DNA of 64,000 bases from contig CAJSYZ010000004.1 in NCBI GenBank assembly GCA_910574455.1, forward strand, positions 1,302,001-1,366,000. Reading direction: 5' to 3'. This DNA is from Trichaptum fuscoviolaceum. Taxonomy: Eukaryota > Basidiomycota > Agaricomycetes > Hymenochaetales > Trichaptaceae. Below the pieces are notes generated by a model. The model saw nothing but the letters and a program-made list of their open reading frames with translations, had not been told where the DNA came from and made no database searches. The position numbers and the translations under genes were made by a program. The first letter of the stretch is position 1; each line of letters starts with the position of its first letter. Positions 8,876-52,040 of the stretch are shown in pieces.

Positions 8876-8992
8876 TAAATAATGGGAGGACATGCATGAA
8901 TAAGTGAAGCTTGCCTTATTCAAGACTTCAGTCTCTCAGGACCTTTAAGTGATGCTTAAGTCACTTTCAGCAGAAAGTAGTCTTCCTGATGG
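8876..8992. repeat. Dispersed 110-bp repeat, copy 1
   Basis: From AATAATGGGAGGACATGCAT to about CAGAAAGTAGTCTTCCTGATG this matches 52731-52842 with only a handful of differences. Beyond these edges the two loci do not match. It may be a small non-autonomous element or a segmental copy; I see no clear target-site duplication. Confidence 0.75.
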
Positions 8993-21048: not shown

Positions 21049-21770
21049 CGCGCCGCGACCGTTACCCGGTTTGTTTGGCTTAAAAATTTCATTGTTTACA
21101 CAAAGTATATTTAAAGTAACTATTATTTAAGCTACCGGATCGGGCGACCGTAGGGAGCCCCTGCATCAGGGAAACTTCCGTCTGCTTACGGCGACTGGCG
21201 CGTCCTGGCGCGTCCTGAAGCTTCCTTAAATGGGATGAAGCGATGCCATGCCTACCTGAAGCGTTGCCTGGCTGCCTGATGGCCTTAGAACACGGTGTTT
21301 CAGGACGAAATCAGTGCATAAGGAGGGAAGTTGTACATCAGGCGCCAAGCCAGGCTCAAGTGAGATTTAAGCACGAGCGTGCACAGTTTAAGTAAAATGG
21401 CAAGTACAAGATAAGTTCATCAGCAGATTCAGTATAGAAGTCGAAGCCGCCACTCATTACTGCCAACTACTACTACTACTGTGCATGTATTGAGACTTCA
21501 AGCTCAGGCTCGTTCATCATCATCATCATTATAGTATGACAGGTGTTGCTCATGCTATCCAGCACACCCATTCCCTGGGTGTTCACCAAACTATAACTAG
21601 CACTAGTGGTATACAAAGTAAAAAGCAATATGTACTATGTGAAAATGTATAGGAAGGGCTACAGTACTATGGGCAGTTGCAATCATGATCGTACATCTGG
21701 TTCAAGTTACAGTCTATCTCATTCTGAAAACCCGATACTATCCGACACGTTCAAATTTCCCTGCTACATA
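21049..21770. other. No supportable gene
   Basis: A direct repeat GGCGCGTCCT occurs twice near 21196-21215. Otherwise this is low-complexity flank with CTACTACTACTACT and CATCATCATCATTAT runs at 21465-21530. Confidence 0.4.
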
Positions 21771-23989
21771 CTACGCCATGTTCAAATGATCAAATTCAGC
21801 ACATCCCACTATCGATTTCAACTGTTTTTCTTCGGGCTCTGTCCAAGCCCTCGCGCGTGAGATGAAAGCCGCAATTCTCAACTGCCCATTATTATTTGGT
21901 GGAGGTGGTAAGTCAGGACCCAAAAGATCACCGCTGACCTCATAAACACCTGCGACCACCTCCCGAAACGCGTCTGTGAACTTTGCTTTCTCGGTTTCTG
22001 AGAGGGGCGTCCCGTCGGATTCCTCGGCATCTGAAGCGAACAGACTTGACAGCCTTGTAGCGGATTCATAAATCTTCTCGACACTCCACTCTCGCTCATG
22101 TGCGATCGCATTCAGTGCTTTGCCCATAACAGATTTCTTGTTCACGACGTGCTTGAAGATTTCATCATTGGTAACTATCGCGAGCCATCTTTTCACTGTC
22201 GTATATCCATGAATTAGAGCTCTCTGGGTATTTTCCGCCTTATTCAAAGCCGAAGAATAGAAGTTCAATGTCTGGGGTTCGGGAGGGACCACTTCATTGT
22301 CAGAGTTGCGGGGACGTTTCCTCTGAGGATCATCCATAACATCTGTGTGATCCGGAAGGGCACGCTTGCGATGGTCACGTATGTAGCCAGATGAATGAAC
22401 TTCAGGTCCTTGCTTTCGTAGATTTGTCGAATCCATACTTCGATCCAATCGTTTACGGTGCCCCTCGAATGCAGCCATACGTTGCTGGCGAAAGGGCGCT
22501 ACAGTTGGTTCCAATTCCTTCTGTAAGTCCTTGGACGCAAGCATATCGCTGCCTTGGAAAACAGCAATTGCCTCTTGAAGTTTGACATCGATATTTTTGC
22601 TGTTCACCTCCCGTGCCGATAGGTCGCGTTTCACCAATATCAGTAAACGGTTCAAATCAATCGCCCCCACAGATGGCCATCGATCATACCCATCCGGATA
22701 GATATCCTCGTTGCTGGTAAAAATAATACACGCTTTTTGCGCCGGCGTCTGGTAATCGTGTGATCCTCCTGCCCATCCTCCTTCCCTCTCGTGCAGTTCA
22801 ATGCGGTTGCGGAACACGTGAATCATCTCGTCCAGAAGTTCGATGTGGTTCCTATACGCAACGTAATGGGCTAGGAACAAGGGGATGAAGAAATAGAATA
22901 TCCCAGACTTAAATATGGGAAGCTCGAGTTTGTTGTCAGTGTAATTCAGACAGTACTTCTGCTCTCGCAGACTGGGCAGAGGTCCTCTTTCTCGAAAGCG
23001 CGTTCTTTCGTCCATCGGATATAGACTTTCTCCCAATGGGGACCTCGATTGAATCAGACGGAGAGAATTTCCTTCGCCATGAAGAGTTTTATGATAGTTC
23101 ACAAAAATATGTTTCATCTGAAGGTTGAAGCTCATCCATTCTATCTTTCGCTGGCCTCGGAACTGAAGGCAAGCTTCCCTCTCAGACTTCTCAAAGGGAA
23201 GGAGGAAAAACGAGCCGTGAACAACATAGCGTTGAAGGTCCTCCAGGAAAGACCTCAAGGTCACCCCATCCTTCGCCACTTGATTCTAGATGAAGACTGT
23301 CAGACGTTTAGAATCAATGTTAAGAAGTATGACCATTACATACCCCATCAACACTTTCACATAATAGATCGACAGTTTCAAAAACCTCTTCGACGAGCTT
23401 CTCCTGTTTACTGAAGGATTCGCTAAGTCTCGTGAGTTCTTGAAACTTTGCATGGTATGCCTTCTTCATTTCCGTCACCTCGTTTCTCAGAGCGGCTACC
23501 TCTGCACGAAGATCCTCGTCTTCCGTCTGCACGACTGATGCATCCTGTCCTGTCTCTTGCCCTCCTTGCTCTCCCGTCCTAGCAGGATCCAATACACTTA
23601 AATCACAACTATTTTGCATGGCCTCGTCGTGTTCATTCGTTCCGGAAGATAGACACCTGTGTATATCCTTTTGCCGAATTATATCTTGTTTAAGAGTTGC
23701 CATAGCGATAAAGGCTTATAATTTGCGCTAATAAGCAATTATCCATAGATATCAATTGAGATAAGTTAATACCTGAAGGAGCCGACTTTGACTCGTTGAT
23801 CTCAGCTTTGACCCCCCAGACAGGTTCCTTTCTTGGGCCTTCCACATTATCAAGAGTATATTCCACCGGACCATTTTGCGCCTCCATCGCCTTACCCCTC
23901 GGGCTGTCTAAGAGACTCATAGACTGAGCTCGCCCTCCCCCGGCGCTGTCAGATCGTTGACTTGGAGGAGCCGAGTGGGATGGCGTCAA
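21771..23989 (-). CDS. Unknown protein, coiled coil plus membrane-like segment
   Basis: The main exons are 23703-23344 and 23285-21771, joined at ...CESVDG|NQVAKDGVT by a clean GT..AG intron, giving 624 codons from the Met at 23703. A further 5' exon (about 23989-23768, MTPSHSAPPSQRSDSAGG...) can be spliced on in frame, so the true start may be there or further up. The N-terminal part has a heptad coiled coil (DEDLRAEVAALRNEVTEMKK). A hydrophobic stretch follows in the middle (IFYFFIPLFLAHYVAY), then a basic region with RKRALPDH and QRKRPRNSD signals. I do not recognise the family. It lies next to, and in the same direction as, the protease array, and its codon usage looks normal. Confidence 0.65.
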
Positions 23990-24488
23990 GTCCCTTCCTA
24001 TAAGAAGTTCGCCGCGATGTTGGTTGGTGTCGATGCAATTGGTCCCACTGATTCAGCGACTTTGAGATACCACTGCTGCGAGTACAATGCGTGGCATCAT
24101 GCTGTTTCTGGAATTGCATGATGTTGTTTGGAACCTCGGAAGACCTCAGGCTACGTCTCGGGCTGCGAGTACGTCTGGAGTCAACCCGCGTGGGTCTACC
24201 TCGGTCCTGTGCCAGTGTAGTATGAGTAGTATGGTACTGGTGCGAGCAACCTGGGTCGTCCGAGACTTCTTGTTGTTCTTCAAGTTCTTGACCTAACTCC
24301 TGATACCGGTGTGCTTGAGTGCCAGCTGCCAGAGACGACGATACAGGTGTGACACTGTTAGTAGTAAGGCCGCAGCGCCAGACACAATGACCACAACTGC
24401 AGGTGGGACTCAGGCTCCTGGATCGCGTCGTCAGGAGCCAGTCACAGCGGTGGCGAGAGCCTGAGGGTTCGAAGTTCGAGTTTAACAT

Positions 24489-24788
24489 TTCAGGCAGCAG
24501 AGTTGCAGATTTAGAAGTAGTACTACTACTAGTAGTAGTAGTAGTAGTACTAGTGTCAGCCTCAGGCTGAGTGTCCTCTTCTTGAAGCGAGTAGTAGTAC
24601 TACGTAGAGTACTCACTGGCAGGCTACTACTATCTGAGTGGTGGCGTGCCAGTGACTCAGTTTGAAACTGCTACTAAGAATAGTAGTGCTACTACAAGAG
24701 TCGTTCAGGCTCAATACTCAAGTTCGCAACAGATATTCCATTAGTACTAGCGTACAACAACACACAACAAAAGCAGAAAAGCATGAAA
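24489..24788. repeat. Trinucleotide and palindrome-rich spacer
   Basis: It holds (TAG/CTA)n runs such as TACTACTACTAGTAGTAGTA near 24523-24550 and ACTGGCAGGC and GTGCCAGTGAC around 24620-24655. From 24697 it holds the block AGAGTCGTTCAGGCTCAA that marks the 3' edge of each array unit. Confidence 0.6.
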
Positions 24789-27700
24789 CTAGTAAGAATA
24801 GTAGTGGAGGAATGCGGAAGAAAGACAGATTAACAAAGTAAAGATACATTGTTCAGAGTCAGTCCTTGCGTGTCGTTGGTACAACGATCGGCGGAAATTT
24901 GGCATATAGGTAAGCATCTCATCAATAGCGAATGCTGGGAGCGCGTAGGTGAAATCGCCGTTGTCAGCACCTGTGCTAACTTGAAGACCCTTGACACAAG
25001 TTTCGGTAATTATTCCGCCCCATTTGCCGTCCAAGGTAGCAATCAGAGAACCAGAATCACCACTTTTTGCGAAACAGTAGTCGTATTTTGAAGGTATATT
25101 CCAGACAAGGCGTGCAGCTCCTTTTTTCAACTTTGCCAGTGGCGGATTCGTCGGGTTGCCGCCGAGTGTCCTATTTATGACTGCGTAGATCGCAGACTCC
25201 ATCGGGTTCGCATATCCAACTGTTACACCAGTGGTAGCACCAGCCTTTAACACCGCAATCTCATGATTGAATTGATCCGACCTTTCGATATACCCTGACT
25301 TGATTTCGAGACGTTCATTCGTAGGGTACGGAACCTTTGCTTTTCCATAGGCCGACCGAATACACTCGATGTTGGTCTCAGGATGCTGCCCGAAGTGAAT
25401 GACATTACACTGAAAGTTCGTTTCGTTGACTTTCTTGTCAAACAGCTGCACGAGGGCAAACTCAGAATTGAAACCGAATTCATGCCCAATCTCGGCACAG
25501 GTCTGCGAGCCTGAATGCGAATAGCCAACATAGCCAATGGTCCCAGCGCGAGTCCCATTAGGTTCGAGTAGGTTGAAATTTTCGTAAACCTTCCGATGGA
25601 TTTCGCGATAGTCCCCCATTGCTTTAGTGGTAGATTTGGAGAGCGCAGAGGCTATTTCGATTTCTTGGGAAATGTTGATTGTCATTCCACCATAAGGAGC
25701 ATACTTAGCGCTTGGGACTGCGATGCTTCCGCTACCATCTGCTTGTAAATCCTTCGAGATCAATTCCAGTTTGTCAAGTCGTTCTTTGCATCTCTGCCTT
25801 TGTCTTCCAAGCTCATTTAACGCTCGACAGAATTCGTTGTCGATAAAGGAACGGTAGGCATCAGGTAGAATATGGACTAGATATAGTTCACGCTTGTCCT
25901 CGACGTCTGATACACGCTGGTCCTCGTCAGCTGGGTTTTCAACGGCGTCCACTAGTTCGTTGATGGTAGTTTCACTAGAGGCGGAAAATATAGCATGTCC
26001 GTTAATCAAACTGAACAGTTTATCCAACCCCTGAAATTTGATGATGGGACCCCATGTACTGAAAGTGTCCTGACCACTAACTCCTATGCTTGTTCCTCGA
26101 AGGGTTGAAGTGTATGCCTCTAGAGACTTAATTATAGATTCAGGAGATCTGGGTTTACTGGGGTCTCCAATCAATAGTTTATCGGGCGGAAGGACGAGAG
26201 CCGTGCTGTCCGGAATTATGGTATCAGGTGCCAGTGGTCGAAAACAAGGTAAGGAAACGTTCTCTGTCGGGTCCTTGGTTTCTTGGCCGAGACTTCCGAA
26301 CCCAGACGCGGGAGCGGCAAGGCCATCGACTACATGTGATTGTCCAGGTGCTGGTACGGGGCCAGGTAGTTGTTCGTGTTCGAGAGGTTTTCCGTCGTCC
26401 AGGGGATTAGGGGTTGGTACCACCCCACTTGCGGAACAGGACTGAGGAATGGCCTCGCGAAATTCTACCTCGAACCGCCCTGATAATGTCCAGCGCTTGC
26501 GAATGGAGCTTCTAATCGCGTCGGCGCATTCACAATAAACATCACCAACAGGCCTCTCGTAGTCGGAGGGCATAAGCACCTCCAACTCGGACGGTATTAC
26601 TCCAATCCACACGACAACAGGATCTGACCTCCCGTCTTCCCCCTTCCCGTCTTTATGATATCCAATCTTGCATATATCTATGCATGTCACGGTATGCCTG
26701 ACGTGAAAGCGATCAAAAGCGTCTTCAAATATAGGTAGCAAAACGGGCCATTGCCCGATCAGAGGGCAGTTGTTGTCAAGGACGTTTATGTGCTTCATCG
26801 CTTTCTCGCGCTTATGCGGTCCCGGAATGTTCCCCTGGCGTCCCACAAAAAATCCACTACGCCCGACAGGAACAGCGTTGGTCGGACATCCCCAGTAATA
26901 ATTGAGATGATCCTTCAGATCCCAAATCCTCCGAGTCTTCACAGGTTTTTTCGCTTCCAATGATATGATATTAGAACTGTCTGTGAGAAGGGTCGTATCC
27001 GGGATTGTCTTCTGTGTCACTGCCAGTGGCGGCGGTAGAGGTACCGGCCATACACCATGTACTGGGGGTCCATTGAACGTCTAATGGAGGCAGAAGGGGA
27101 AACGGTAACAAATCAGCATGGCTGGGGAAAAAGCAAATGACATAGCACGACATACATCTACGATGTCACCAATCTTCGACAATTGCGTTTCGCGAACTGG
27201 CGCGGCCACCGCAGTATCGGTAGCCTGAGAGTCTTCCTTGCTTGTAGCGATACCGGAACTCAGGCTGAGTTGTTTCACTCCCGAGGACGTCTCTTGTGTC
27301 ACTCGTGGCGGCAACTTCTGCTTACTGTCTACTGGAGGCGCATTGGACGTCTTTAGATGAGACGATGAGAATTCATTATGCATGATAACAAACAAAAGTA
27401 GCACGACATACGTTTACGCTGTCATCAATCTTTGACAATTGCGTTTCGCGAACTGGCGAGGTAACCGCAGCATCGGCAGAATCCTGCTTGCCAGTGAGAT
27501 AGAGATGGGGGAAAGAGACAAATCAGCGTGGAACAGGGAGAATGAGAACAGGACACTACTCGGTTGTTAACTTTTTTGCCATCGTAAACAAACGTTATCT
27601 TGGTGATGCAATGTTGAGGCAGATGGAGAGGGGTCAACTCAACATGACAGATAAGAATAAATTAGTGAATCGTACTTTGACCTTTGCCTTGTTGTTAGGA

Positions 27701-28037
27701 TCGTAATGTAACCGTAACAATTGTTCCGTAGTAGCGGCTCTCCGTTGAGCAGGAATGTTGGACAGCTTCAAGTTGAGAAGAGAGAAAGATAGAATATCAG
27801 TAAAACCTAATAAGAACTTGAAGCCACCGGCACTACACAAAAATTGCATAAGCCTGAGACAACAAGACATACATCAAATATTATGCGAGTGTCACTGCGC
27901 TCTAGTGCAACAATGACCTTCCAGAATAAAGATAATAGTGTCGGGGTGAAGTGGGGGAATAACAAGTCAATACCAGTACAGCGATACAAGAAAGAAGGAC
28001 ATACTTTAAAATTCAGACTGAAGTCGGACTTCGACAT
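24789..28037 (-). CDS. Trypsin-like domain protein, array copy 1
   Basis: Inferred exons: 28037-28005 (MSKSDFSLNFK), 27917-27873, 27765-27676, 27598-27560, 27483-27412, 27350-27156 and 27080-24789. All introns are phase 0, about 921 residues. The last exon holds a shared N-terminal domain (CPLIGQWPVLLPIFEDAFDRF, VVVWIGVIPSELEVLMPSD), a Pro-rich linker and a trypsin-like domain. The domain has candidate His in INGHAI, conserved KAGATTGVTVG and the nucleophile motif KSGDSGSLIATLDGKWGG. The Asp position reads SEFALVQL, that is Glu. The apparent start VTQKT is a GTG inside an exon, not a real start. A 2-bp TA insertion near 24905 switches the C-terminus to another frame, adding a hydrophobic tail. 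Target and role are unknown. Confidence 0.72.
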
Positions 28038-28429
28038 TCTTATCCACTGATAGGAAACCTGAGAGTGGAGAGGCAAGATTTGAAGACAGGACACCGTTCT
28101 TATACTACTAGTAGTAGTATAGTACTGTGATGATCATGATGATGTGGCGTGACGACTCCGACTCGGAGTCCATATCGGACCGTAGTACTAGGCAAACTTG
28201 AACTTGAAATAGAGCAGTGAGGCTAACTTGAACCTAGTAGTACTAGTAGTAAGAATATCACTATACTAGAGTCGTTCAGGCTCAATGCTCAAGTTCGCAA
28301 CAGATATTCCATTAGTACTAGCGTACAACAACACACAACAAAAGCAGAAAAGCATGAAACTAGTAAGAATAGTAGTGGAGGAATGCGGAAGAAAGACAGA
28401 TTAACAAAGTAAAGATACATTGTTCAGAG

Positions 28430-31400
28430 TCAGTCCTTGCGTGTCGTTGGTACAACGATCCGCGGAAAATTGGCAAAGGTAAGGATGTCATCAATAGCGA
28501 ATGCTGGGAGCGCATAGGTGAAATCGCCGAGATCAGCCCTCGTCCAACGTCGAAGACCCTTGACACAAGTTTCGGTAATTATTCCGCCCCATTTGCCATC
28601 CAAGGTAGCAATCAGAGAACCAGAATCACCACTTTTTGCGAAACTGTAGTAGTATTTTGAAGGTATATTCCAGACAAACCGTACATCCCTTTGTTTCAAC
28701 GTTGGCAGTGGCGTCGGGCTGCCGCCGAGTGTCCTACTAATGACTGCGTAGATCGCAGACTCTATCGGGTTCGCTTCTCCAACTGTTACACCGGTGGCAG
28801 CACCAGCCTTTATCACCGCAATCTCTTGATTGAATTGAACCGACCTTTCGATATACCCTGACTTGATCTCGAGACGTTCATTCGTAGGGTACGGAACCTT
28901 TGCTTTTCCATAGGCCGACCGAATATACTCGATGTCGGTCTCAGGATGCTGCCCGAAGTGAATGACATTACACTGAAAGTTCGTTTCGTTGACTTTCTTG
29001 TGGAGCAGCTTCACGAGGGCAAACTCAGAATAGAAACCGAATTCATGCCCAATCTCGGCACAGGTAACCCCCGTCTGGATGCGAATAGACAACATAGCCA
29101 ATGGTCCCAGCGCGAGTCCCATTAGTAGGTTCGGTGAGGACGTAATTTTCAATCTTCTTATGGATTCGGTTACAGCCCTCTAATGCATTACTGATAGATT
29201 CGGAGAGCTGAAGGACCTTTCTCCTTTCTTCGGAAATATTGATTGTCATTCCACCATAAGGAGAATAATTAGGGATATTTGGGACTGCGATGCGTTCGCT
29301 ATCATCTGCTATTAAATTCTTCGAGATCAACGCCAGAGCCTGATAGCATGCTTTGAGTTCGCTATACTCTTTTGAAAACGTATTCCACGCTTTCTCCAAT
29401 GCTTCTCGGATACTAATGACGCGGGCATCAGGTAGAATATGGACTAGATACTGCTTGTCCTCGATGATTGGTACCACGGGTTCTGGTGTCTCGACCTCGT
29501 CAACTGACATCCGATTCTCATCATCTGCTGAACCCTGGTCCTCCGAGTTGTCATTTCGGCGGGTTCCAAAGGCGTCGACACGTTCATCAATTATAATCCA
29601 ATTAGAGTCGGAAACGACAGCATGACGACTGATCAAACTGAACAGTTCGTTGCTCCCTTGAAGTTTGATGATGGGACCCCATGTACTGAAAGTGTCCTGA
29701 CCACTAACTCCTATGCTTGTTCCTCGAAGGGTTGAAGTGTATGCCTCTAGAGAATTAATTATAGATTCAGGAGATCTGGGTTTACTGGGGTCTCCAATCA
29801 ATATTTTATTGGGCGGAAGGACGAGAGCCGGGCTGAACGGAATTTTGGATTCAGATGCCAGTGGTCGAAAACGAGGTAAGGGAACATTCTCTGTCGGGTC
29901 CTCCGTTTCTTGGCCGAGACTTCCGAACCCAGACGCGGGAGCGGCAAGGCCATCGACTACATGTGATTGTCCAGGTGCTGGTACGGGGCCAGGTAGTTGT
30001 TCGTGTTCGAGAGGTTTTCCGTCGTCCAGGGGATTAGGGGTTGGTACCACCCCACTTGCGGAACAGGACTGAGGAATGGCCTCGCGAAATTCTACCTCGA
30101 ACCGCCCTGATAATGTCCAGCGCTTGCGAATGGAGCTTCTAATCGCGTCGGCGCATTCACAATAAACATCACCAACAGGCCTCTCGTAGTCGGAGGGCAT
30201 AAGCACCTCCAACTCGGACGGTATTACTCCAATCCACACGACAACAGGATCTGACCTCCCGTCTTCCCCCTTCCCGTCTTTATGATATCCAATCTTGCAT
30301 ATATCTATGCATGTCACGGTATGCCTGACGTGAAAGCGATCAAAAGCGTCTTCAAATATAGGTAGCAAAACGGGCCATTGCCCGATCAGAGGGCAGTTGT
30401 TGTCAAGGACGTTTATGTGCTTCATCGCTTTCTCGCGCTTATGCGGTCCCGGAATGTTCCCCTGGCGTCCCACAAAAAATCCACTACGCCCGACAGGAAC
30501 AGCGTTGGTCGGACATCCCCAGTAATAATTGAGATGATCCTTCAGATCCCAAATCCTCCGAGTCTTCACAGGTTTTTTCGCTTCCAATGATATGATATTA
30601 GAACTGTCTGTGAGAAGGGTCGTATCCGGGATTGTCTTCTGTGTCACTGCCAGTGGCGGCGGTAGAGGTACCGGCCATACACCATGTACTGGGGGTCCAT
30701 TGAACGTCTAATGGAGGCAGAAGGGGAAACGGTAACAAATCAGCATGGCTGGGGAAAAAGCAAATGACATAGCACGACATACGTTTACGCTGTCATCAAT
30801 CTTTGACAATTGCGTTTCGCGAAATGTAGAGTCTTCCTTGTTTGTTGCGAAAGCGTCTTCCTTGCTTGTAGCGATACCGGAACTCAGGCTGAGTTGTTTC
30901 ACTCCCGAGGACGTCTCTTGTGTCACTCGTGGCGGCAACTTCTGCTTACTGTCTACTGGAGGCGCATTGGACGTCTTTAGATGAGACGATGAGAATTCAT
31001 TATGCATGATAACAAACAAAAGTAGCATGACATACGTTTACGCTGTCATCAATCTTTGACAATTGCGTTTCGCGAAATGTAGAGTCTTCCTTGTTTGTTG
31101 CGAAAGCGTCTTCCTTGCTTGTAGCGATACCGGAACTCAGGCTGAGTTGTTTCACTCCCGAGGACGTCTCTTGTGTAACTCGTGGCGGCAACTTCTGCTT
31201 ACTGTCTACTGGAGGCGCATTGGACGTCTTCAGATGAGACGATGAGAATTCATTATGCATGATAACAAACAAAAGTAGCACGACATACGTTTACGCTGTC
31301 ATCAATCTTCGGCAATTGCGTTTCGCGAGGAGTAGAGTCTTCATCGCTTGTTGCAATACCGGAACGATGGTGTTTCTTATCTTTCTGTGTCACCCGCCGT

Positions 31401-31758
31401 CGCCGCGGAGGCTTCAACTGCTTGCTGTCTACTGGAGGCGCATTGGACGTCTACAGTCGAGACAATGAGAAATTAGCAGGGCAGTAAATAACTTGAAAGT
31501 AAGATATCAAGACACACGTTAGCTAGAGTCGTGTTTGGCGCGAAGATGGCTTGTATGGTTCTTAGAAAACCTCGCAATTTCGTGCGGACTTTGGGGGGGT
31601 TCCTCTTCGAGTCCGAGTCGGAATGAAGACAACAGATTAATATTCGAATGACTTGAAGATACTAGTAGTACTAGTAGTAGTAGCACTTCACTCACTTCAA
31701 GTTTACGATGATTACTGGCGAACTCGGAACGGACTCGCTCTCTCCTCCGTGGCCACAT
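28430..31758 (-). pseudogene. Trypsin-like domain protein, array copy 2 (frameshift)
   Basis: The first exon is probably 31758-31696 (MWPRRRERVRSEFASNHRKLE). It is followed by one or more unclear exons (31518 upward), three repeated exons (31450-31289, 31227-31036, 30974-30783) and the main exon from 30707. The protease part is more diverged than in the other copies (EFALVKLL, SRHAVV, KSGDSGSLI) and ends IVVPTTRKD. At 29066-29080 a +1 base in a CCCCC run breaks the frame between GYVVYSHPDGG and TCAEIGHEFGF. With one such difference in a homopolymer, a sequencing error is possible, so the gene may be intact. Confidence 0.65.
30783..31450 (-). repeat. Tandem phase-0 exon repeat in copy 2
   Basis: Three consecutive exons of 192, 192 and 162 nt begin T-S-N-A-P-P-V-D-S-K-Q and end E-T-Q-L-x-K-I-D-D-S-V-N. 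The first two are nearly identical in DNA, including flanking intron. The first codons of the main exon (TFNGPPVHG...) are a diverged fourth unit. All are bounded between codons, so any number keeps the frame. Confidence 0.85.
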
Positions 31759-32177
31759 TACGAATGCCTGCGAGACAAGATTATGAGGACAGGAGTGAAT
31801 ACGACAGGTCAACTTGAATACGGGAAGGATGGAAACTCAAAAGGAAAGGGCATACCATCGATTACGAGACAAGACCATTTCTTTTACTTTATATACTACT
31901 AGTCACGGTACTTGAAGTTCCTCCGAGTCTGAGTCAGCCTGCACCGTGACACGCGGCGGTGCGGCACTCAGGCTGCCAACTGGCAGTTGAAACTACTACT
32001 AAGAATAATACTTCAAGAGTCGTTCAGGCTCAATACTCAAGTTCGCAACAGGTATTCCATTAGTACTAGCGTACAACAACACACAACAAAAGCAGAAAAG
32101 CATGAAACTAGTAAGAATAGTAGTGGAGGAATGCGGAAGAAAGACAGATTAACAAAGTAAAGATACATTGTTCAGAG

Positions 32178-35100
32178 TCAGTCCTTGCGTGTCGTTGGTA
32201 CAACGATCGGCGGAAATTTGGCATAGGTAAGCATCTCATCAATAGCGAATGCTGGGAGCGCGTAGGTGAAATCGCCGTTGTCAGCACCTGTGCTAACTTG
32301 AAGACCCTTGACACAAGTTTCGGTAATTATTCCGCCCCATTTGCCGTCCAAGGTAGCAATCAGAGAACCAGAATCACCACTTTTTGCGAAACAGTAGTCG
32401 TATTTTGAAGGTATATTCCAGACAAGGCGTGCAGCTCCTTTTTTCAACTTTGCCAGTGGCGGATTCGTCGGGTTGCCGCCGAGTGTCCTATTTATGACTG
32501 CGTAGATCGCAGACTCCATCGGGTTCGCATATCCAACTGTTACACCAGTGGTAGCACCAGCCTTTAACACCGCAATCTCATGATTGAATTGATCCGACCT
32601 TTCGATATACCCTGACTTGATTTCGAGACGTCCATTCGTAGGGTACGGAACCTTTGCTTTTCTATAGGCCGACCGAATACGCACGACATTGGTCTCAGGA
32701 TGCTGCCCGAAGTGAATGACGTTACACTGAAAGTTCGTTTCGTTGACTTTCTTGTCGAACAGCTGCACGAGGGCAAACTCAGAATTGAAACCGAATTCAT
32801 GCCCAATCTCGGCACAGGTCTGCAAGCCTGAATGCGAATAGCCAACATAGCCAATGGTCCCAGCGCGAGTCCCATTAGGTTCGAGTAGGTTGAAATTTTC
32901 GTAAACCTTCCGATGGATTTCGTGATAGTCCCCCATTGCTTTAGTGGTAGATTTGGAGAGCGCAGAGGCTATTTCGATTTCTTGGGAAATGTTGATTGTC
33001 ATTCCACCATAAGGAGCATACTTAGCGCTTGGGACTGCGATGCTTCCGCTACCATCTGCTTGTAAATCCTTCGAGATAATTCCAGTTTGTCAAGTCGTTC
33101 TTTGCATCTCTGCCTTTGTCTTCCAAGCTCATTTAACGCTCGACAGAATTCGTTGTCGATAAAGGAACGGTAGGCATCAGGTAGAATATGGACTAGATAT
33201 AGTTCACGCTTGTCCTCGACGTCTGATACACGCTGGTCCTCGTCAGCTGGGTTTTCAACGGCGTCCACTAGTTCGTTGATGGTAGTTTCACTAGAGGCGG
33301 AAAATATAGCATGTCCGTTAATCAAACTGAACAGTTTATCCAACCCCTGAAATTTGATGATGGGACCCCATGTACTGAAAGTGTCCTGACCACTAACTCC
33401 TATGCTTGTTCCTCGAAGGGTTGAAGTGTATGCCTCTAGAGACTTAATTATAGATTCAGGAGATCTGGGTTCACTGAAGTCTCCGGCCAAAATTTTATCC
33501 AGGCGGAAGGTCAAGAGCCGTGCTGTCCGGAATTATGGTATCAGGTGCCAGTGGTCGAAAACAAGGTAAGGAAACGTTCTCTGTCGGGTCCTTGGTTTCT
33601 TGGCCGAGACTTCCGAACCCAGACGCGGGAGCGGCAAGGCCATCGACTACATGTGATTGTCCAGGTGCTGGTACGGGGCCAGGTAGTTGTTCGTGTTCGA
33701 GAGGTTTTCCGTCGTCCAGGGGATTAGGGGTTGGTACCACTCCACTTGCGGGACAGGACTGAGGAATGGCCTCGCGAAATTCTACCTCGAACCGCCCTGA
33801 TAATGTCCAGCGCTTGCGAATGGAGCTTCTAATCGCGTCGGCGCATTCACAATAAACATCACCAACAGGCCTCTCGTAGTCGGAGGGCATAAGCACCTCC
33901 AACTCGGACGGTATTACTCCAATCCACACGACAACAGGATCTGACCTCCCGTCTTCCCCCTTCCCGTCTTTATGATATCCAATCTTGCATATATCTATGC
34001 ATGTCACGGTATGCCTGACGTGAAAGCGATCAAAAGCGTCTTCAAATATAGGTAGCAAAACGGGCCATTGCCTGATCAGAGGGCAGTTGTTGTCAAGGAC
34101 GTTTATGTGCTTCATCGCTTTCTCGCGCTTATGCGGTCCCGGAATGTTCCCCTGGCGTCCCACAAAAAATCCACTACGCCCGACAGGAACAGCGTTGGTC
34201 GGACATCCCCAGTAATAATTGAGATGATCCTTCAGATCCCAAATCCTCCGAGTCTTCACAGGTTTTTTCGCTTCCAATGATATGATATTAGAACTGTCTG
34301 TGAGAAGGGTCGTATCCGGGATTGTCTTCTGTGTCACTGCCAGTGGCGGCGGTAGAGGTACCGGCCATACACCATGTACTGGGGGTCCATTGAACGTCTA
34401 ATGGAGGCAGAAGGGGAAACGGTAACAAATCAGCATGGCTGGGGAAAAAGCAAATGACATAGCACGACATACATCTACGATGTCACCAATCTTCGACAAT
34501 TGCGTTTCGCGAACTGGCGCGGCCACCGCAGTATCGGTAGCCTGAGAGTCTTCCTTGCTTGTAGCGATACCGGAACTCAGGCTGAGTTGTTTCACTCCCG
34601 AGGACGTCTCTTGTGTCACTCGTGGCGGCAACTTCTGCTTACTGTCTACTGGAGGCGCATTGGACGTCTTTAGATGAGACGATGAGAATTCATTATGCAT
34701 GATAACAAACAAAAGTAGCATGACATACGTTTACGCTGTCATCAATCTTTGACAATTGCGTTTCGCGAAATGTAGAGTCTTCCTTGTTTGTTGCGAAAGC
34801 GTCTTCCTTGCTTGTAGCGATACCGGAACTCAGGCTGAGTTGTTTCACTCCCGAGGACGTCTCTTGTGTAACTCGTGGCGGCAACTTCTGCTTACTGTCT
34901 ACTGGAGGCGCATTGGACGTCTTCAGATGAGACGATGAGAATTCATTATGCATGATAACAAACAAAAGTAGCACGACATACGTTTACGCTGTCATCAATC
35001 TTCGGCAATTGCGTTTCGCGAGGAGTAGAGTCTTCATCGCTTGTTGCAATACCGGAACGATGGTGTTTCTTATCTTTCTGTGTCACCCGCCGTCGCCGCG

Positions 35101-35451
35101 GAGGCTTCAACTGCTTGCTGTCTACTGGAGGCGCATTGGACGTCTACAGTCGAGACAATGAGAAATTAGCAGGGCAGTAAATAACTTGAAAGTAAGATAT
35201 CAAGACACACGTTAGCTAGAGTCGTGTTTGGCGCGAAGATGGCTTGTATGGTTCTTAGAAAACCTCGCAATTTCGTGCGGACTTTGGGGGGGTTCCTCTT
35301 CGAGTCCGAGTCGGAATGAAGACAACAGATTAATATTCGAATGACTTGAAGATACTAGTAGTACTAGTAGTAGTAGCACTTCACTCACTTCAAGTTTACG
35401 ATGATTACTGGCGAACTCGGAACGGACTCGCTCTCTCCTCCGTGGCCACAT
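32178..35451 (-). pseudogene. Trypsin-like domain protein, array copy 3 (two frameshifts)
   Basis: The first exon is likely 35451-35389. Repeated exons are 35143-34982, 34920-34729 and 34667-34473, then the main exon from about 34387 down to 32178. Compared with copy 1 it lacks one base at about 33078 (GATAATTCC for GATCAATTCC), and compared with copy 4 it has an extra C at about 33500. Each breaks the frame. The protease domain is otherwise as in copy 1 (SEFALVQL, KSGDSGSLI) and ends IVVPTTRKD. Both changes are single-base, in a near-identical duplicate, where assembly polishing often fails. It could be functional in reality. Confidence 0.65.
34473..35143 (-). repeat. Tandem phase-0 exon repeat in copy 3
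   Basis: Three exons of 162, 192 and 195 nt match those of copy 2, except that the last carries the QATDTAVAAP variant end also found in copies 1 and 4. This shows that exon units move between copies. Confidence 0.85.
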
Positions 35452-35870
35452 TACGAATGCCTGCGAGACAAGATTATGAGGACAGGAGTGAATACGACAG
35501 GTCAACTTGAATACGGGAAGGATGGAAACTCAAAAGGAAAGGGCATACCATCGATTACGAGACAAGACCATTTCTTTTACTTTATATACTACTAGTCACG
35601 GTACTTGAAGTTCCTCCGAGTCTGAGTCAGCCTGCACCGTGACACGCGGCGGTGCGGCACTCAGGCTGCCAACTGGCATTGAAACTACTACTAAGAATAA
35701 TACTTCAAGAGTCGTTCAGGCTCAATACTCAAGTTCGCAACAGGTATTCCATTAGTACTAGCGTACAACAACACACAACAAAAAGCAGAAAAGCATGAAA
35801 CTAGTAAGAATAGTAGTGGAGGAATGCGGAAGAAAGACAGATTAACAAAGTAAAGATACATTGTTCAGAG

Positions 35871-38800
35871 TCAGTCCTTGCGTGTCGTTGGTACAACGAT
35901 CGGCGGAAATTTGGCATAGGTAAGCATCTCATCAATAGCGAATGCTGGGAGCGCGTAGGTGAAATCGCCGTTGTCAGCACCTGTGCTAACTTGAAGACCC
36001 TTGACACAAGTTTCGGTAATTATTCCGCCCCATTTGCCGTCCAAGGTAGCAATCAGAGAACCAGAATCACCACTTTTTGCGAAACAGTAGTCGTATTTTG
36101 AAGGTATATTCCAGACAAGGCGTGCAGCTCCTTTTTTCAACTTTGCCAGTGGCGGATTCGTCGGGTTGCCGCCGAGTGTCCTATTTATGACTGCGTAGAT
36201 CGCAGACTCCATCGGGTTCGCATATCCAACTGTTACACCAGTGGTAGCACCAGCCTTTAACACCGCAATCTCATGATTGAATTGATCCGACCTTTCGATA
36301 TACCCTGACTTGATTTCGAGACGTCCATTCGTAGGGTACGGAACCTTTGCTTTTCTATAGGCCGACCGAATACGCACGACATTGGTCTCAGGATGCTGCC
36401 CGAAGTGAATGACGTTACACTGAAAGTTCGTTTCGTTGACTTTCTTGTCGAACAGCTGCACGAGGGCAAACTCAGAATTGAAACCGAATTCATGCCCAAT
36501 CTCGGCACAGGTCTGCGAGCCTGAATGCGAATAGCCAACATAGCCAATGGTCCCAGCGCGAGTCCCATTAGGTTCGAGTAGGTTGAAATTTTCGTAAACC
36601 TTCCGATGGATTTCGTGATAGTCCCCCATTGCTTTAGTGGTAGATTTGGAGAGCGCAGAGGCTATTTCGATTTCTTGGGAAATGTTGATTGTCATTCCAC
36701 CATAAGGAGCATACTTAGCGCTTGGGACTGCGATGCTTCCGCTACCATCTGCTTGTAAATCCTTCGAGATCAATTCCAGTTTGTCAAGTCGTTCTTTGCA
36801 TCTCTGCCTTTGTCTTCCAAGCTCATTTAACGCTCGACAGAATTCGTTGTCGATAAAGGAACGGTAGGCATCAGGTAGAATATGGACTAGATATAGTTCA
36901 CGCTTGTCCTCGACGTCTGATACACGCTGGTCCTCGTCAGCTGGGTTTTCAACGGCGTCCACTAGTTCGTTGATGGTAGTTTCACTAGAGGCGGAAAATA
37001 TAGCATGTCCGTTAATCAAACTGAACAGTTTTATCCAACCCCTGAAATTTGATGATGGGACCCCATGTACTGAAAGTGTCCTGACCACTAACTCCTATGC
37101 TTGTTCCTCGAAGGGTTGAAGTGTATGCCTCTAGAGACTTAATTATAGATTCAGGAGATCTGGGTTCACTGAAGTCTCCGGCCAAAATTTTATCAGGCGG
37201 AAGGTCAAGAGCCGTGCTGTCCGGAATTATGGTATCAGGTGCCAGTGGTCGAAAACAAGGTAAGGAAACGTTCTCTGTCGGGTCCTTGGTTTCTTGGCCG
37301 AGACTTCCGAACCCAGACGCGGGAGCGGCAAGGCCATCGACTACATGTGATTGTCCAGGTGCTGGTACGGGGCCAGGTAGTTGTTCGTGTTCGAGAGGTT
37401 TTCCGTCGTCCAGGGGATTAGGGGTTGGTACCACTCCACTTGCGGGACAGGACTGAGGGAATGGCCTCGCGAAATTCTACCTCGAACCGCCCTGATAATG
37501 TCCAGCGCTTGCGAATGGAGCTTCTAATCGCGTCGGCGCATTCACAATAAACATCACCAACAGGCCTCTCGTAGTCGGAGGGCATAAGCACCTCCAACTC
37601 GGACGGTATTACTCCAATCCACACGACAACAGGATCTGACCTCCCGTCTTCCCCCTTCCCGTCTTTATGATATCCAATCTTGCATATATCTATGCATGTC
37701 ACGGTATGCCTGACGTGAAAGCGATCAAAAGCGTCTTCAAATATAGGTAGCAAAACGGGCCATTGCCTGATCAGAGGGCAGTTGTTGTCAAGGACGTTTA
37801 TGTGCTTCATCGCTTTCTCGCGCTTATGCGGTCCCGGAATGTTCCCCTGGCGTCCCACAAAAAATCCACTACGCCCGACAGGAACAGCGTTGGTCGGACA
37901 TCCCCAGTAATAATTGAGATGATCCTTCAGATCCCAAATCCTCCGAGTCTTCACAGGTTTTTTCGCTTCCAATGATATGATATTAGAACTGTCTGTGAGA
38001 AGGGTCGTATCCGGGATTGTCTTCTGTGTCACTGCCAGTGGCGGCGGTAGAGGTACCGGCCATACACCATGTACTGGGGGTCCATTGAACGTCTAATGGA
38101 GGCAGAAGGGGAAACGGTAACAAATCAGCATGGCTGGGGAAAAAGCAAATGACATAGCACGACATACATCTACGATGTCACCAATCTTCGACAATTGCGT
38201 TTCGCGAACTGGCGCGGCCACCGCAGTATCGGTAGCCTGAGAGTCTTCCTTGCTTGTAGCGATACCGGAACTCAGGCTGAGTTGTTTCACTCCCGAGGAC
38301 GTCTCTTGTGTCACTCGTGGCGGCAACTTCTGCTTACTGTCTACTGGAGGCGCATTGGACGTCTTTAGATGAGACGATGAGAATTCATTATGCATGATAA
38401 CAAACAAAAGTAGCACGACATACGTTTACGCTGTCATCAATCTTTGACAATTGCGTTTCGCGAACTGGCGAGGCAACCGCAGCATCGGCAGAATCCTGCT
38501 TGCCAGTGAGATAGAGATGGAACAGGGAGAATGAGAACAGGACATACTCGGTTGTTAACTTTTTTGCCATCGTAAACAAACGTTATCTTGATGTCAGGCA
38601 GTGTTGAAACAAGTAAGAAGGGGGAACACATCAACATCATGGCAGATTAAAAGAAATATCAAGACATTTTACTTCAAGTTCGGCGTTTGAATTGTTGTTG
38701 CTACTAGTCGGTAAGTTTGGCTGCATCAATTGTTGGATGAAGTCTCTCTTGTCAGGAGTAAGGTTGGAAAGCTTGAGCAGAAGCGAAAGGCAGAATGTCA

Positions 38801-39057
38801 GTATAACTTAGTAAGAGGCCACCAAACAATTCTTGTGGCATAGTACAAAACACACATTGTATATTAGTTTGTAAATTTCCGACTGCCATCCTGCCAGTGA
38901 GTGGGAGTCAGCCTGTGCGCCGTCACTGCCAGTGGCATCGCGTCGGAGTGGTACTATCTTTGCCTTCGAGTTGAGAGCAACAGGTAAATACGGATAGCAA
39001 TATATGAACTTTGAAAGAAGGGCATACGTCAAATTCAAGTTGCACGACATCCGACAT
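35871..39057 (-). pseudogene. Trypsin-like domain protein, array copy 4 (two frameshifts)
   Basis: Inferred exons: 39057-39028 (MSDVVQLEFD), 38963-38856, 38771-38673 (LSNLTPDKRDFIQQL), 38586-38548 (ITFVYDGKKVNNR), 38495-38424, 38362-38168 and 38092-35871. All introns are phase 0, matching copy 1 exon for exon. An extra T in TTTT at about 37030 and an extra G in GGG at about 37457 break the main exon relative to the other copies. The protease part equals that of copy 3. The same caution about homopolymer errors applies. Without those two bases the reading is full length. Confidence 0.65.
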
Positions 39058-39612
39058 TGTTACCAACTGATAGTGGGAAGCCTGAGAGGGTGGGGGTGCC
39101 AGTGGAAGACACTGGCGGCGCTCTTATTCTTATATTAGTAGTGTTCAAGTTGCCACGCCGGCACTCAGTGGCAGCCTGAGCCTCAGAGGCTGGGAGTGCC
39201 TGGGAGTGCCAGTGACGACTCGGAGTCCAGTGACTCCGACTCCGAGTCGGAGTTGCGACTCCGGGTCGAAGATAGCACTGGCAATCACTCAGGAGGCTGT
39301 GATACTACTTAGGCTGAGTACGATTTAGATGCCTTCAAGTTCACGTTATAAGTCACTATGCCCAATCTGACTTTACGTTCAACAATTGGAGCTCTACTTG
39401 AACTAGAACTTTACCCATTTCAAGGTTTGATCTGCAAGATTGAAGTTGTAACAGCTTTGGAACATCATGATATTTTTGTATCACAATTTGCAACTACTAA
39501 GTAAGGGCACGCAATAAAACCAACAAAACCAGTATGCTAGTGGAGAGATGGACAAGTGAAGGGGAAAAAATAGATAGGCAACGTCGATTCGGACTTGCTC
39601 TCGCTGTCAACT
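39058..39612. repeat. Spacer dense in short palindromes
   Basis: Between 39090 and 39300 I see AGTGGCAGCCTGAGCCTCAGAGGCT, AGTGCCAGTGACGACTCGGAGTC and GACTCCGACTCCGAGTCGG, in pieces of the same few motifs run together. TTCAAGTT occurs at 39145 and 39333. No gene is seen. Confidence 0.7.
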
Positions 39613-41789
39613 TCAAGGCTGCGGGTCCAAGTCCGGGTCAGTGTCAGCCTGAGCCTGAGGTATTATAATTCTGGGGAATTCAGCCTCATTATAGAGTTGC
39701 TCGAGGATTGCGAAAGCAGGGATTGTATATGTTATGTCGAGTCGATCTTCATCAACCCCGACCCCAGATGCGACGAGACCTCCCCACCGTCCTCGTAAGT
39801 CAGCGACGACAGCTCCAGAATCACCTGCTGTCGAGAAGACGTCCGATAGCGGCGAATACACGGTCCAGTACAGGTGTTGGTCATACGTGAGAATGTATGT
39901 GGGACGGTTGTTGCGATAGCACACATTGACGCGGACGAAGGAGATTGCCTCCATAGGGTTGGCCATGCCGACTGTCACACCGGTGGAAGCACCAGCTTTT
40001 ATAACTGGGATCGAAACATTCATCTCAGCGCTCGGGATGATATCGGCCCTGATAGGCAACGAGTTATTTTCGGGATATAACTCATGTTGCTCATTGAAAA
40101 ATGTTCGTATCCTGTTCAAAATAGTGTTGTCCTGCGCGTAGATACCGAAGTTCAAAACGTTATAGTATGGGACCACTGTGTTAGCCATTACGGTATGGCA
40201 CAGCTGGACGACAGCAATATCGCGGTCGTACATACTCCGGTAGTTCTCGCGCCTTGGTGAAGGCGAATAGACTACTGCGCCGATGACCAGGGTGTTTGAG
40301 TTGTCACTAGTATCCGCATGCCATGTCTGAAGCTGAGTTTTGAAGTTGTTCAGTTCGCTCCTTACTTGTCGCACGTCTGCTATAGCCTGTACGTAGTCAA
40401 CCCGGGTCTGTGCATGGCGTAACAATTTCTCTAGAAGTTCCTCCTCCACCGAACTCAGGTACGATTTGTAAATATAATCGTAGTGGATCGTAGGTGCAAT
40501 TTGCACGCGTTTCAAGTTGTAGGCGGTGGCGTTCTCGACTCTATTGTCGATATGTGAGATGGTGTCTGGAAGCAATACATGACGACACGTTATGAAGTGC
40601 GATAGAAGCCTGGCTTCCTGTCCTTCCGACTGAACTGGAATCTGCACAACAAGTCCCAGAGTTCCGTACGATCGCTTTCCTCGGGGGCTGACAGCAACGC
40701 CTGGTTGCACCGATATAGCGTGTGAGACAGTGGTCTGGACCTTGTGCAACATCCGTTGCATGAATGATCCCAGATCAGATTGTGAGGGGTCAGGAACGGG
40801 TGGCAGCATGAGGACGAGCTGACCCCAAACTTCGTCATCCACTTCCCTGAGAGGTGCAGCGTTCGGTTGAGGTTCGGGATTCGGTCGTTCAACATCAGGT
40901 ACAGGGACATACGTCTCAGGTGGGATTTGGTTTATAGCCATATAGACCAGGGGGTCTGCATCATGATCAGCTTGTTCGTCGGTGTCGACATGACGAAATT
41001 CTATGGCCTCGCGAAATTCTACCTCGAACCGCCCTGATAACTTGAATGTCCAGCGCTTGCGAATGGAGCTTCTAATCGCGTCGGCGCATTCACAATAAAC
41101 ATCACCAACAGGCCTCTCGTAGTCGGAGGGCATAAGCACCTCCAACTCGGACGGTATTACTCCAATCCACACGACAACAGGATCTGACCTCCCGTCTTCC
41201 CCCTTCCCGTCTTTATGATATCCAATCTTGCATATATCTATGCATGTCACGGTATGCCTGACGTGAAAGCGATCAAAAGCGTCTTCAAATATAGGTAGCA
41301 AAACGGGCCATTGCCCGATCAGAGGGCAGTCGTTGTCGAGGACGTTCAAGAACTTTTCTTTTCCCCGATGTTGATGGTCCTCTTTTCGCCGCCGATCATG
41401 GTTCGATCTGCCAACCAGAGGAGGGTTGGACCGAATCCCGATATAATACTGACAGGTATAAAAACTCGACTCGGAGTTCAGTGTCGCCACTGGCCTTCTA
41501 AATGGCTAATTGAGGTAAATGGGGGATCGGTGACATTCAGCATGGTGAAAATTTCAATTAAACAGCAGTACATACTAGTACCTGAGCCCGGCCCACCGGC
41601 GATGACTTCAAGTCCAAGTTGGATGTGAGATAACAAATTTGAAATTGTAGTATAAGACGCCAAGACATAACTCACTTCCAAATTCAAAGAGCTGCCACTT
41701 GGCAGCCTGAGGCTGGCATTGACTTGCTGTGCCAGTGAGCCGCCGGGACGACTCGGACGCTTCATCCGGTCTCGGTTGCCCGGATTCAT
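39613..41789 (-). CDS. Trypsin-like domain protein, array copy 5 (full triad)
   Basis: Probable exons are 41789-41676 (MNPGNRDRMKRPSRPGG... LNLE), 41605-41582 and 41505-39613, about 676 residues. The main exon has the array's N-terminal domain (WPVLLPIFEDAF, IGVIPSELEVLMPSD), then a diverged linker and a trypsin-like domain. The domain has HFITCRHVLL (His), DRDIAVVQL (Asp), VIKAGASTGVTVGMANP and STAGDSGAVVADLRGRWGG (Ser), a complete catalytic triad in family order. The main exon is open throughout. The C-terminus is acidic (QADTDPDLDP) and its stop lies in a CTTGAAG motif. It is probably an active serine protease of the fungal trypsin-like type; the substrate is unknown. Confidence 0.75.
41003..41335 (-). 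repeat. Conversion tract shared with copies 1-4
   Basis: From ATGGCCTCGCGAAATTC to about AGAGGGCAG this part of copy 5 is almost identical to copies 1-4, while sequence on both sides is highly diverged. Inside it, copy 5 alone has six extra bases, CTTGAA, at about 41041. Confidence 0.85.
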
Positions 41790-42329
41790 CGTATTGTGAA
41801 TAAAAGCTGCAAGAGACAGTCAGTAATAATAAGGGGAATGGGAGAGCAGACAATAGTTGAATGCGGGAAGGATAGTGACACGGGAGGAAAGGACATACTA
41901 CTTTTCAGATGAATGAGCGAGGACGAGGAGGGCAAAGGGCGAGGACCTGGCATTGAAGCTTCTTCAAGTCATACTTTATAGAGTAGTTGCAGCCTGAGTG
42001 GCTGCGGTACTAGTACTATTAGCTATTTTCGTAACGTACCCAGACCAGGCTACTACTAGTAGGCTGAGTAAGTAGTATGTCTGCGTGTAGTAGACACGCC
42101 GCCACAGCACTGCCAGTGAGACATATAAGGAAAGTCGCCTGGCCTTCAAGTCATCCACACACCCAAAGCACAACCGGGCCAGCACTTACTCAGAACGTTC
42201 TGGGCAGAAATCCAGCGACTTCGGCAGCCTGAGCAATGAACCACTCTGGCAATCACTATTCACTGGGTACCGAGCCACGAAGACATGGCCGCGAACGGCG
42301 AACAAGCCTGAGTGGACGCGAAAGCCGAA

Positions 42330-42830
42330 ATCGCGGCACAATTCTCCGACTCGAGATAGGTTGGACGCCTGAAGCATCCCGATGTTGCAGACCGGAAACT
42401 CCAATCCTCCTTGCGCTGGAAGACGGAGTGGATCAGATTGAAGAGTGGGAAGAAACTGCGCGCCGTTGACCTCACTGCACCGTCTCGGGCAGTTCGCAGA
42501 ATCTGCAAGGATCGGAGCCGGAACGAGTGTGTGATCATCACACAACTCCGGACGGGATACACACCACTCAATACTCACTTGGCCCGCATATTGTGCACTG
42601 ACTCTCCTCTCTGTTTCAATTGCCAAGTTCCGGATCCGGTCTCCCATTATCTCTTCACGTGCCAGTGTCGATTGCCAGTGTGTACGCAGACACCCGCCGA
42701 CTCGGAGCACTCCAAACGTCACTCAAAAATAAACCCTTCACATTGAGATCAACCCTGGGCAAGGGTACCAGGCATGACCTAGTCCTGCACTACATCAAGG
42801 ACAACGCTTTCCCCACCTGTTCCCGGCCAT
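42330..42830 (+). mobile_element. LINE (non-LTR retrotransposon) 3' fragment
   Basis: The frames read WKTEWIRLKSGKKLRAVDL, RNECVIITQLRTGYTPLNTHL, DSPLCFNCQ then VSHYLFTC, and after a frame change YADTRRLGALQTSLKNK, FTLRSTLGKG and DLVLHYIKD. This is the zinc-binding tail after the RNase H part of fungal LINE pol proteins (Q-L-R-T-G-x-x-x-L-N, C-x-x-C, H-x-x-x-x-C). No RT domain is nearby, so it is a dead 5'-truncated remnant. GTGCCAGTG and TTGCCAGTG motifs sit exactly where the frame breaks (about 42660-42685). Confidence 0.75.
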
Positions 42831-43685
42831 CGCGACTCAATGAACCCGGCTTTTTCTACTTATTCCTCGCTTTTTCTCTCTCTCCCGCTCAAAGGAAGGG
42901 CACTGTTTCAAGTTCCGGAATTGCGTGAGCCTGAGCCTGACTCGGAGTGCCGGCAATTTGAAAGCTCGGCCCGTTTTTTACTACGACTAGTACTATCAGT
43001 TTATTTACTAATAGTATACACTCGGAACGCCTCCGACTCGGATTCTCGGATTCTCGAAAGCGGTTCCCCCCATCGACTCGGACTCGGAGCACTGTATAAA
43101 AACCATCACCAACATATTGTATCAACACTTGAACTATTCCTGTAACTGTATGCACTCCCCTCTGAGAGTCTTTCAAGCAACACTTCGCCTCACAATACCG
43201 TCATTCGGCATATCTCAATCTGATCATACCCTTTGCACTTTTTCTTGTTTGTTAAAATTATTCTGCGCTTTCAAGTTCTACAATTACATTCAAGTTACAG
43301 TAGTGTTAAATTACAATGTATTCTAAGTGCGCCATCATCATGATAGGCCCTACTTAAGGGCCTGCGGTCACTATAATGGAATAATACATCAAATCAAATT
43401 AGTCATGGTGCCACTGCCAGTGGTACTGTGCCAACCCGACTCGGAGTCGGACTCGGCGTGCCACTGCCAGTGTTTTCTAACGCCGACTCCTCGTCAAGGA
43501 TAACTTCAAGTTCGGATTTTGGAGGGTACACCGCCATGACCTCATCACAACTTGAATACTAATCATTGAAATCATATTTGACATGCCCTTGCCGTGCTCT
43601 CTCAAGGTACAAATTATATAGTCATATATGCCAACATACTCACAGGCATGCTAACGCCTAGAAATAGGATTTAACTCTATTCAAG
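42831..43685. other. No gene; palindromes near transposase end
   Basis: It contains GACTCGGA repeats near 43035-43090, and at 43407-43490 CCACTGCCAGTGG, GACTCGGAGTCGG and CCACTGCCAGTG. These may mark the 3' side of the Plavaka element. Confidence 0.5.
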
Positions 43686-47802: not shown

Positions 47803-47919
47803 AGCAGTAGTGGGCGTAAATTTTCAACTTGTCTAAGATAGACGCCCCCGCCTCCCTGATCTTGAACTTGCACCTTCGATCCATCTTATCCTCATACAAG
47901 ACTCAAAACACTGCACAAA
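47803..47919. promoter_or_regulatory. Short divergent promoter
   Basis: Only 117 bases separate the start codons of the transposase (-) and the micro-exon gene (+). It contains TCAACTTG, TCTTGAACTTGC and a C-rich GACGCCCCCGCC. The two genes must share control sequence or have overlapping leaders. Confidence 0.65.

Positions 47920-52006: not shown

Positions 52007-52040
<34 letters not shown>

What the first reader, a model, noticed from the sequence alone, without database searches (positions are those of the whole stretch)
24697..41789. Five-gene tandem array of trypsin-like proteins with variable front exons
Five minus-strand genes share an N-terminal domain and a C-terminal trypsin-like domain, but their 5' exons differ in number and content. 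Units are mosaics of one another: 2 and 3 share 5' exons, while 1, 3 and 4 share the protease end. Fast-changing fronts on a conserved effector domain are what is seen in self/non-self or conflict genes. That role is inference; the array structure is directly visible.
Basis: partly seen in the sequence, partly recalled or inferred. Interest (0 to 1): 0.75.

Follow-up and report, generated by a model that had tools for sequence, protein, structure and literature searches.

The report
Protease gene array inside jumping gene
The row of repeated protease-like genes is real, but it is cargo of a young fungal jumping gene of the Plavaka type found in many places in this genome, and the number of repeats differs from copy to copy.

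Summary
The array is real and mosaic as described, but it is not a host gene cluster. It is cargo of a DNA transposon at window 21164-52843, with CATCAGGG...CCCTGATG ends, a Plavaka transposase domain and matching 2-bp target duplications in 20 of 21 copies examined. Ends and duplications match the published PlavakaB subgroup (PMC12730594, passages). Copies are young (median 99.73% identity over 4.9 kb in 18 copies) and carry one to four array units. Two C7 copies with identical flanks differ in length by about two units. One sister element lacks the protease; another carries a single one. Gene 5 keeps a His-Asp-Ser triad and is under purifying selection (dN/dS 0.5). Array units have Glu or Gly for Asp, and their protease half has dN/dS not distinguishable from 1. 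The variable fronts are cassette exons: 30 of 31 found are open and a multiple of three. The function is inferred: gene 5 perhaps cleaves a host factor to favour the transposon. A neutral passenger or a transposition regulator is not excluded.

The parts
21164..52843 (.). Whole PlavakaB-type transposon, 31,680 bp, that contains the array
   Evidence: Sharp shared ends in genome searches; ends and target duplications compared in 21 copies
21164..21176 (+). Left terminal inverted repeat CATCAGGGAAACT (13 bp exact; 23 bp at 87%)
52831..52843 (-). Right terminal inverted repeat
21162..21163 (.). Left copy of the 2-bp target duplication TG
52844..52845 (.). Right copy of the 2-bp target duplication TG
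21774..24052 (-). Companion gene region left of the array (open frames of 504, 131 and 120 aa), function unknown; 91-93% identical DNA in the old relative on C4
24662..28241 (-). Array unit 1 (763-aa frame 24792-27080, altered tail)
28242..31991 (-). Array unit 2 (divergent protease end; read in two frames)
31992..35683 (-). Array unit 3 (front of unit 2, protease end of unit 1; read in three frames)
35684..39340 (-). Array unit 4 (own front, protease end of unit 1; read in three frames); right border approximate
39616..41789 (-). Gene 5: diverged paralogue with His309, Asp429, Ser563; 630-aa open frame 39616-41505, short upstream exon inferred by eye
41003..41346 (-). N-terminal-domain segment of gene 5, 97.4-97.7% identical to the matching segments of units 1-4 (26449-26786, 30076-30413, 33766-34103, 37461-37798)
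27156..27350 (-). Cassette exon of unit 1, 195 bp
   Evidence: pattern-based, no RNA evidence
30783..31450 (-). Three cassette exons of unit 2 (192, 192, 162 bp) with their introns
34473..35143 (-). Three cassette exons of unit 3 (195, 192, 162 bp) with their introns
38168..38362 (-). Cassette exon of unit 4, 195 bp
43692..47823 (-). Plavaka transposase gene region; PF18759 match in the frame 46470-47132 (E 1.9e-23); exon joins not worked out
47866..48420 (+). Right-arm open frame, 185 aa, 92-97% identical in three related elements
51063..52051 (+). Right-arm open frames, 94-99% identical in two sister elements

Best explanation
Shown: the array is the accessory module of a large, recently active PlavakaB-type DNA transposon that moves as one block and leaves 2-bp target duplications. 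Inside it, one gene with a complete His-Asp-Ser triad (gene 5) is followed by one to four copies of a paralogue in which the catalytic Asp is Glu. Inferred, well supported: unequal recombination and gene conversion between units change their number, shuffle fronts and protease ends and keep the N-terminal domain uniform; tandem duplication of in-frame cassette exons varies the fronts. Inferred, about 0.3 likely: gene 5 cleaves a host protein inside the cell that limits the transposon (a silencing factor or co-repressor), and the array units are fast-changing partners or decoys in the same contest. The confidence given is for the mobile-cargo and recombination part.
For: Gene 5 in 18 near-full-length copies at 97-100%. 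Shared left end in 19 other copies and right end in 23 at 98-100%. Exact ends in 21 of 21 and matching 2-bp duplications in 20 of 21 copies (19 of 20 independent sites). Plavaka domain and PlavakaB ends as published. Lengths in steps of one unit; one-unit and four-unit copies read directly. Two C7 copies with identical flanks but 20,654 and 28,241 bp. Mosaic and homogenised N-domain. Cassette exons in frame, 30 of 31. Same backbone without the protease or with a single one. Triad and purifying selection on gene 5.
Against: One copy of 21 lacks a matching duplication. No RNA, protein or strain data. The structure model is poor overall (pLDDT 48) and no Pfam trypsin model matches gene 5. Nothing here shows a target or catalytic activity. 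dN/dS near 1 in the array also fits relaxed selection. One search scored 70 of 151 candidates, so counts are lower bounds.
Confidence: 0.85

Rival explanations
1. Passive passenger: the protease genes were captured by the transposon and are not selected for it; units multiply and decay by recombination alone.
For: Two sister elements with the same backbone have no recognisable protease in the stretch read. Array protease halves have dN/dS not different from 1. Units 2-4 in this copy are interrupted. One old unit has lost Asp and Ser.
Against: Gene 5 is under purifying selection (0.51, 0.37-0.65). Protease genes recur on this backbone (C1). Both old units are open although a neutral simulation gives no stop in only 15 and 6 of 2000 runs. 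Cassette exons keep frame in 30 of 31.
Confidence: 0.25
2. Transposition regulator: gene 5 processes or degrades the element's own proteins, and array units dose or inhibit it.
For: Gene 5 travels with the transposase in every full copy listed that I paired; unit number varies between copies.
Against: Sister C3 has complete ends and a backbone without the protease, so the backbone can exist without it. No cleavage site or activity was tested.
Confidence: 0.2
3. Fixed host locus for self/non-self recognition, as first proposed.
For: Mosaic units and rapid change.
Against: Dispersed, near-identical copies with transposon ends and target duplications.
Confidence: 0.02
4. The unit number is an assembly artefact of near-identical 3.7-kb repeats.
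For: Units share identical stretches; the single-base differences of units 3 and 4 lie in or near short single-base runs, where long reads err. The two C7 copies with identical flanks could be one locus assembled twice.
Against: The four units differ in front and protease type, and the same order of types is read in an independent copy on C12. The assembly has 12 contigs.
Confidence: 0.06

Closest known systems
PlavakaB DNA transposons of Agaricomycotina (PMC12730594, passages read)
   Same: CATCA..TGATG ends, 2-bp duplications, Plavaka transposase domain
   Different: Published accessory gene is a TET/JBP dioxygenase; the words protease, peptidase and trypsin do not occur in that paper's main text. 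Here the cargo is a protease gene plus an array of its paralogues.
Rice NAL1 serine protease and bacterial trypsin-like proteases (PDB)
P0002, uncharacterized protein of Fonsecaea multimorphosa with Trypsin_2 and Peptidase_S64 matches
   Same: N-terminal domain plus trypsin-like half, full triad
   Different: 23% identity over 53% of gene 5; its genomic context was not seen

Membership tests
PlavakaB transposon | Plavaka transposase domain PF18759 | tested here: met
   E 1.9e-23, 83.6 bits, cut-off 26.3, one frame
PlavakaB transposon | Ends CATCA..TGATG | tested here: met
   21 of 21 copies
PlavakaB transposon | 2- or 3-bp target duplication | tested here: met
   2 bp in 20 of 21 copies
PlavakaB transposon | Transposase groups with PlavakaB in a tree; C(2)C and H(3-4)H motifs | not tested
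   No tree or motif check was made
Trypsin-like serine protease (gene 5) | His-Asp-Ser triad | tested here: met
   His309, Asp429, Ser563 by alignment with relatives
Trypsin-like serine protease (gene 5) | Trypsin-like fold | tested here: met
Trypsin-like serine protease (gene 5) | Match to a Pfam or NCBIfam trypsin profile | tested here: not met
   Only sub-threshold matches to other families; the Fonsecaea relative matches PF13365 and PF08192
Trypsin-like serine protease (array units) | His-Asp-Ser triad | tested here: not met
   Glu at the Asp place in the window and C12 units read, Glu and Gly in the two old units, Phe for Ser in one of them
NAL1 family | Fold and degradation of a TOPLESS-type co-repressor | tested here: inconclusive
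   Fold alignment tied with bacterial proteases; target not testable
Fungal self/non-self recognition locus | Polymorphic host locus controlling incompatibility | not testable with these tools
   Only one genome is held; the block is mobile

The most novel reading that the evidence does not exclude
A DNA transposon family uses an encoded intracellular protease to disable a host silencing or co-repressor protein, as other Plavaka elements are thought to use a TET/JBP dioxygenase against DNA methylation, and evolves an array of altered protease paralogues with repeated cassette exons as fast-changing binders or decoys whose number is tuned by recombination in each element copy.
Probability: 0.2. 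Interest if true: 0.85.

Novelty: new variant of a known kind. Interest (0 to 1): 0.55.

Why it matters
It would add proteolysis to the accessory functions carried by large fungal DNA transposons, next to the TET/JBP dioxygenases already described. Near-identical element copies with one to four units form a natural series for testing whether unit number affects transposon expression or movement. It also warns that tandem mosaic gene arrays in fungal genomes can be transposon cargo rather than host recognition loci.

Tried and rejected
Host trypsin family: a six-frame search of this genome with PF00089 gave no match, while 11 of 14 control genomes did; intron-split genes could be missed. Homologues: gene 5 found two proteins, unit 1 none, the alignment the same two. 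P0001, from a public source without a name, is nearly the same as the C1 copy in this genome, so it is not an independent distant relative. The PDB sequence search of gene 5 gave nothing. NCBIfam gave nothing for the proteases. The N-terminal domain modelled alone has pLDDT 40 and was not searched. Marasmius oreades was considered as the source and rejected on genome size (44 Mb in PMC8290104, passages, against 59 Mb here); PMC9674265 (passages) concerns that species too. Literature: searches gave no papers; one search gave four that look unrelated in the listing; one search gave four and eight, three and nine, of which I opened only PMC12730594, PMC8290104 and PMC9674265. The 2014 description of these transposases (recalled) is not held. 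A first comparison of 18 copies mixed strands and was discarded, redone. In one search one of 26 element rows (C2:2956335) had a placeholder right end and is not used.

Full report
Observation. Four head-to-tail minus-strand units, 3.6-3.75 kb apart, and a fifth, diverged gene are present at the stated place. An alignment of units 1-4 in 150-bp windows shows the mosaic: fronts of units 2 and 3 are 96-100% identical up to the last cassette exon (85% there) and 46-65% against units 1 and 4; the N-terminal domain is 98-100% in all four; the protease end is 92-100% among units 1, 3 and 4 and 62-96% for unit 2. Gene 5 shares 344 bp of the N-terminal domain at 97.4-97.7% with the units, while outside that domain the proteins are 31% identical (unit taken from the C2 copy). 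This points to gene conversion.

Where it sits. The genome is a 59.09-Mb assembly in 12 contigs. Gene 5 has 18 near-full-length copies at 97-100%, the window included, one with an internal stop, among 111 listed matches (70 of 151 candidates scored). Window 41500-49500 is covered whole by 16 of 21 matches (20 of 449 candidates scored). On the left, 19 other copies begin at window 21155-21164 and run to the end of the query (67 matches, 35 of 448 candidates scored; the window's own place is not listed). On the right, 23 copies at 98-100% end at window 52843-52846 (42 matches, 36 of 1217 candidates scored); thirteen further rows are related copies at 92-95% or partial ones. I fetched the ends of 20 other copies. 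With the window, ends are exact in 21 of 21 and the 2-bp duplication matches in 20 of 21, the exception being C11:2556723; two C7 copies share one site, so this is 19 of 20 independent sites. A Plavaka transposase domain lies inside. PMC12730594 (passages) gives CATCA..TGATG ends and 2- or 3-bp duplications for PlavakaB, from Agaricomycotina. The host is therefore probably a mushroom-forming fungus or relative (inference). Plavaka domains are numerous in this genome: 165 matches, 123 of 834 candidates scored.

Age and array dynamics. Over 4.9 kb around gene 5, 18 copies differ by a median of 13 substitutions per pair (99.73% identity, largest 79). One search pairs typed-in end coordinates for 26 copies. 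Twelve have lengths in four steps: 20.65 kb (2), 24.3-24.6 kb (6), 28.2 kb (2), 31.7 kb (2, window included). The rest carry insertions, truncations or ends not matched in full, and one row had a placeholder end. A one-unit copy (C2:4088245) and a second four-unit copy (C12:630480) were read directly; the latter has the same order of unit types as the window. Its third unit has five cassette exons where the window's has three. Two C7 copies have identical 40-bp flanks on both sides, so they come from one insertion, yet are 20,654 and 28,241 bp long. If the assembly is right, array length changed without a new insertion.

Cassette exons. A pattern for the acceptor side and a GTATGT-like donor found 31 cassette exons in the window, two other copies and an old relative. 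Of these, 30 are a multiple of three (162-201 bp) and open; one, in the C2 copy, is 194 bp. The pattern does not find every repeat, and no RNA supports the joins. dN/dS of cassettes is too imprecise to use (0.77-0.96 with intervals up to 4.4).

Backbone and cargo. A sister on C3, 17,208 bp, has the same ends with CG/CG duplication, shares the backbone at 88.5% (window 43686-52857) and gives no tblastn match to 12 family proteins at 1e-3. The 20 kb read of a sister on C4 gives none either, but its left end was not found. A relative on C1 has a single protease gene of 715 aa with full triad beside the transposase. An old, rearranged relative on C4 has a gene-5 homologue, units in both orientations and rows of five and six cassette exons. 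Another paralogue of 758 aa with full triad lies next to it, and an interrupted one on C2. The protease is thus a recurrent, optional module on a shared backbone.

Selection. Gene 5 against its old homologue: protease 0.51 (0.37-0.65), N-domain 0.57 (0.36-0.85). Array units against old units: N-domain 0.45 (0.23-0.96) and 0.47 (0.25-1.08); protease 0.93, 1.06 and, old against old, 1.41. Unit 1 against unit 2: 1.16 and 0.73. All protease intervals of the array include 1. A neutral simulation gives 4.6 and 5.6 stops on average, none in 15 and 6 of 2000 runs, while both old units are open; long open frames drew attention to them, so this is suggestive only. Diversifying selection fits; so does a mixture of relaxed and constrained sites.

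Mechanism. Shown: mobile block with exact ends and duplications, unit number and mosaic, triad of gene 5, altered triad of units. Well supported: unequal recombination and conversion. Weakly supported: action on a host factor. Maize NAL1a degrades a TOPLESS-like co-repressor (PMC12915138, passages), and TET/JBP genes on other Plavaka elements are thought to counter silencing (PMC12730594). These make an anti-silencing protease a lead, not a result.

Noticed in passing
window 60199-63999 (-): Long open frame of a Gypsy-type retrotransposon with reverse transcriptase, RNase H, integrase and chromodomain.
   Followed up: no
window 8878-8991: A 114-bp stretch 94% identical to the right end region of the sister transposons, probably a remnant.
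   Followed up: no
window 42360-43100 (+): LINE-like fragment by eye between gene 5 and the transposase; it lies in a stretch shared by the element copies; no Pfam match for the frame tested.
   Followed up: partly
L001-L018: C-to-T and G-to-A changes make up 107 of 217 substitutions against the majority, as expected from methylated-cytosine decay.
   Followed up: no
L082:131-2404 (+) (C4:1554930-1557203): 758-aa paralogue with full triad just outside the old relative of the element.
   Followed up: partly
C7:2799623-2820276 and C7:2828773-2857013: Two element copies with identical flanks, apparently a segmental duplication or a locus assembled twice.
   Followed up: partly
C6:1869526-1939935: An element copy whose ends lie 70 kb apart, with extra array pieces, apparently with nested insertions.
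   Followed up: no
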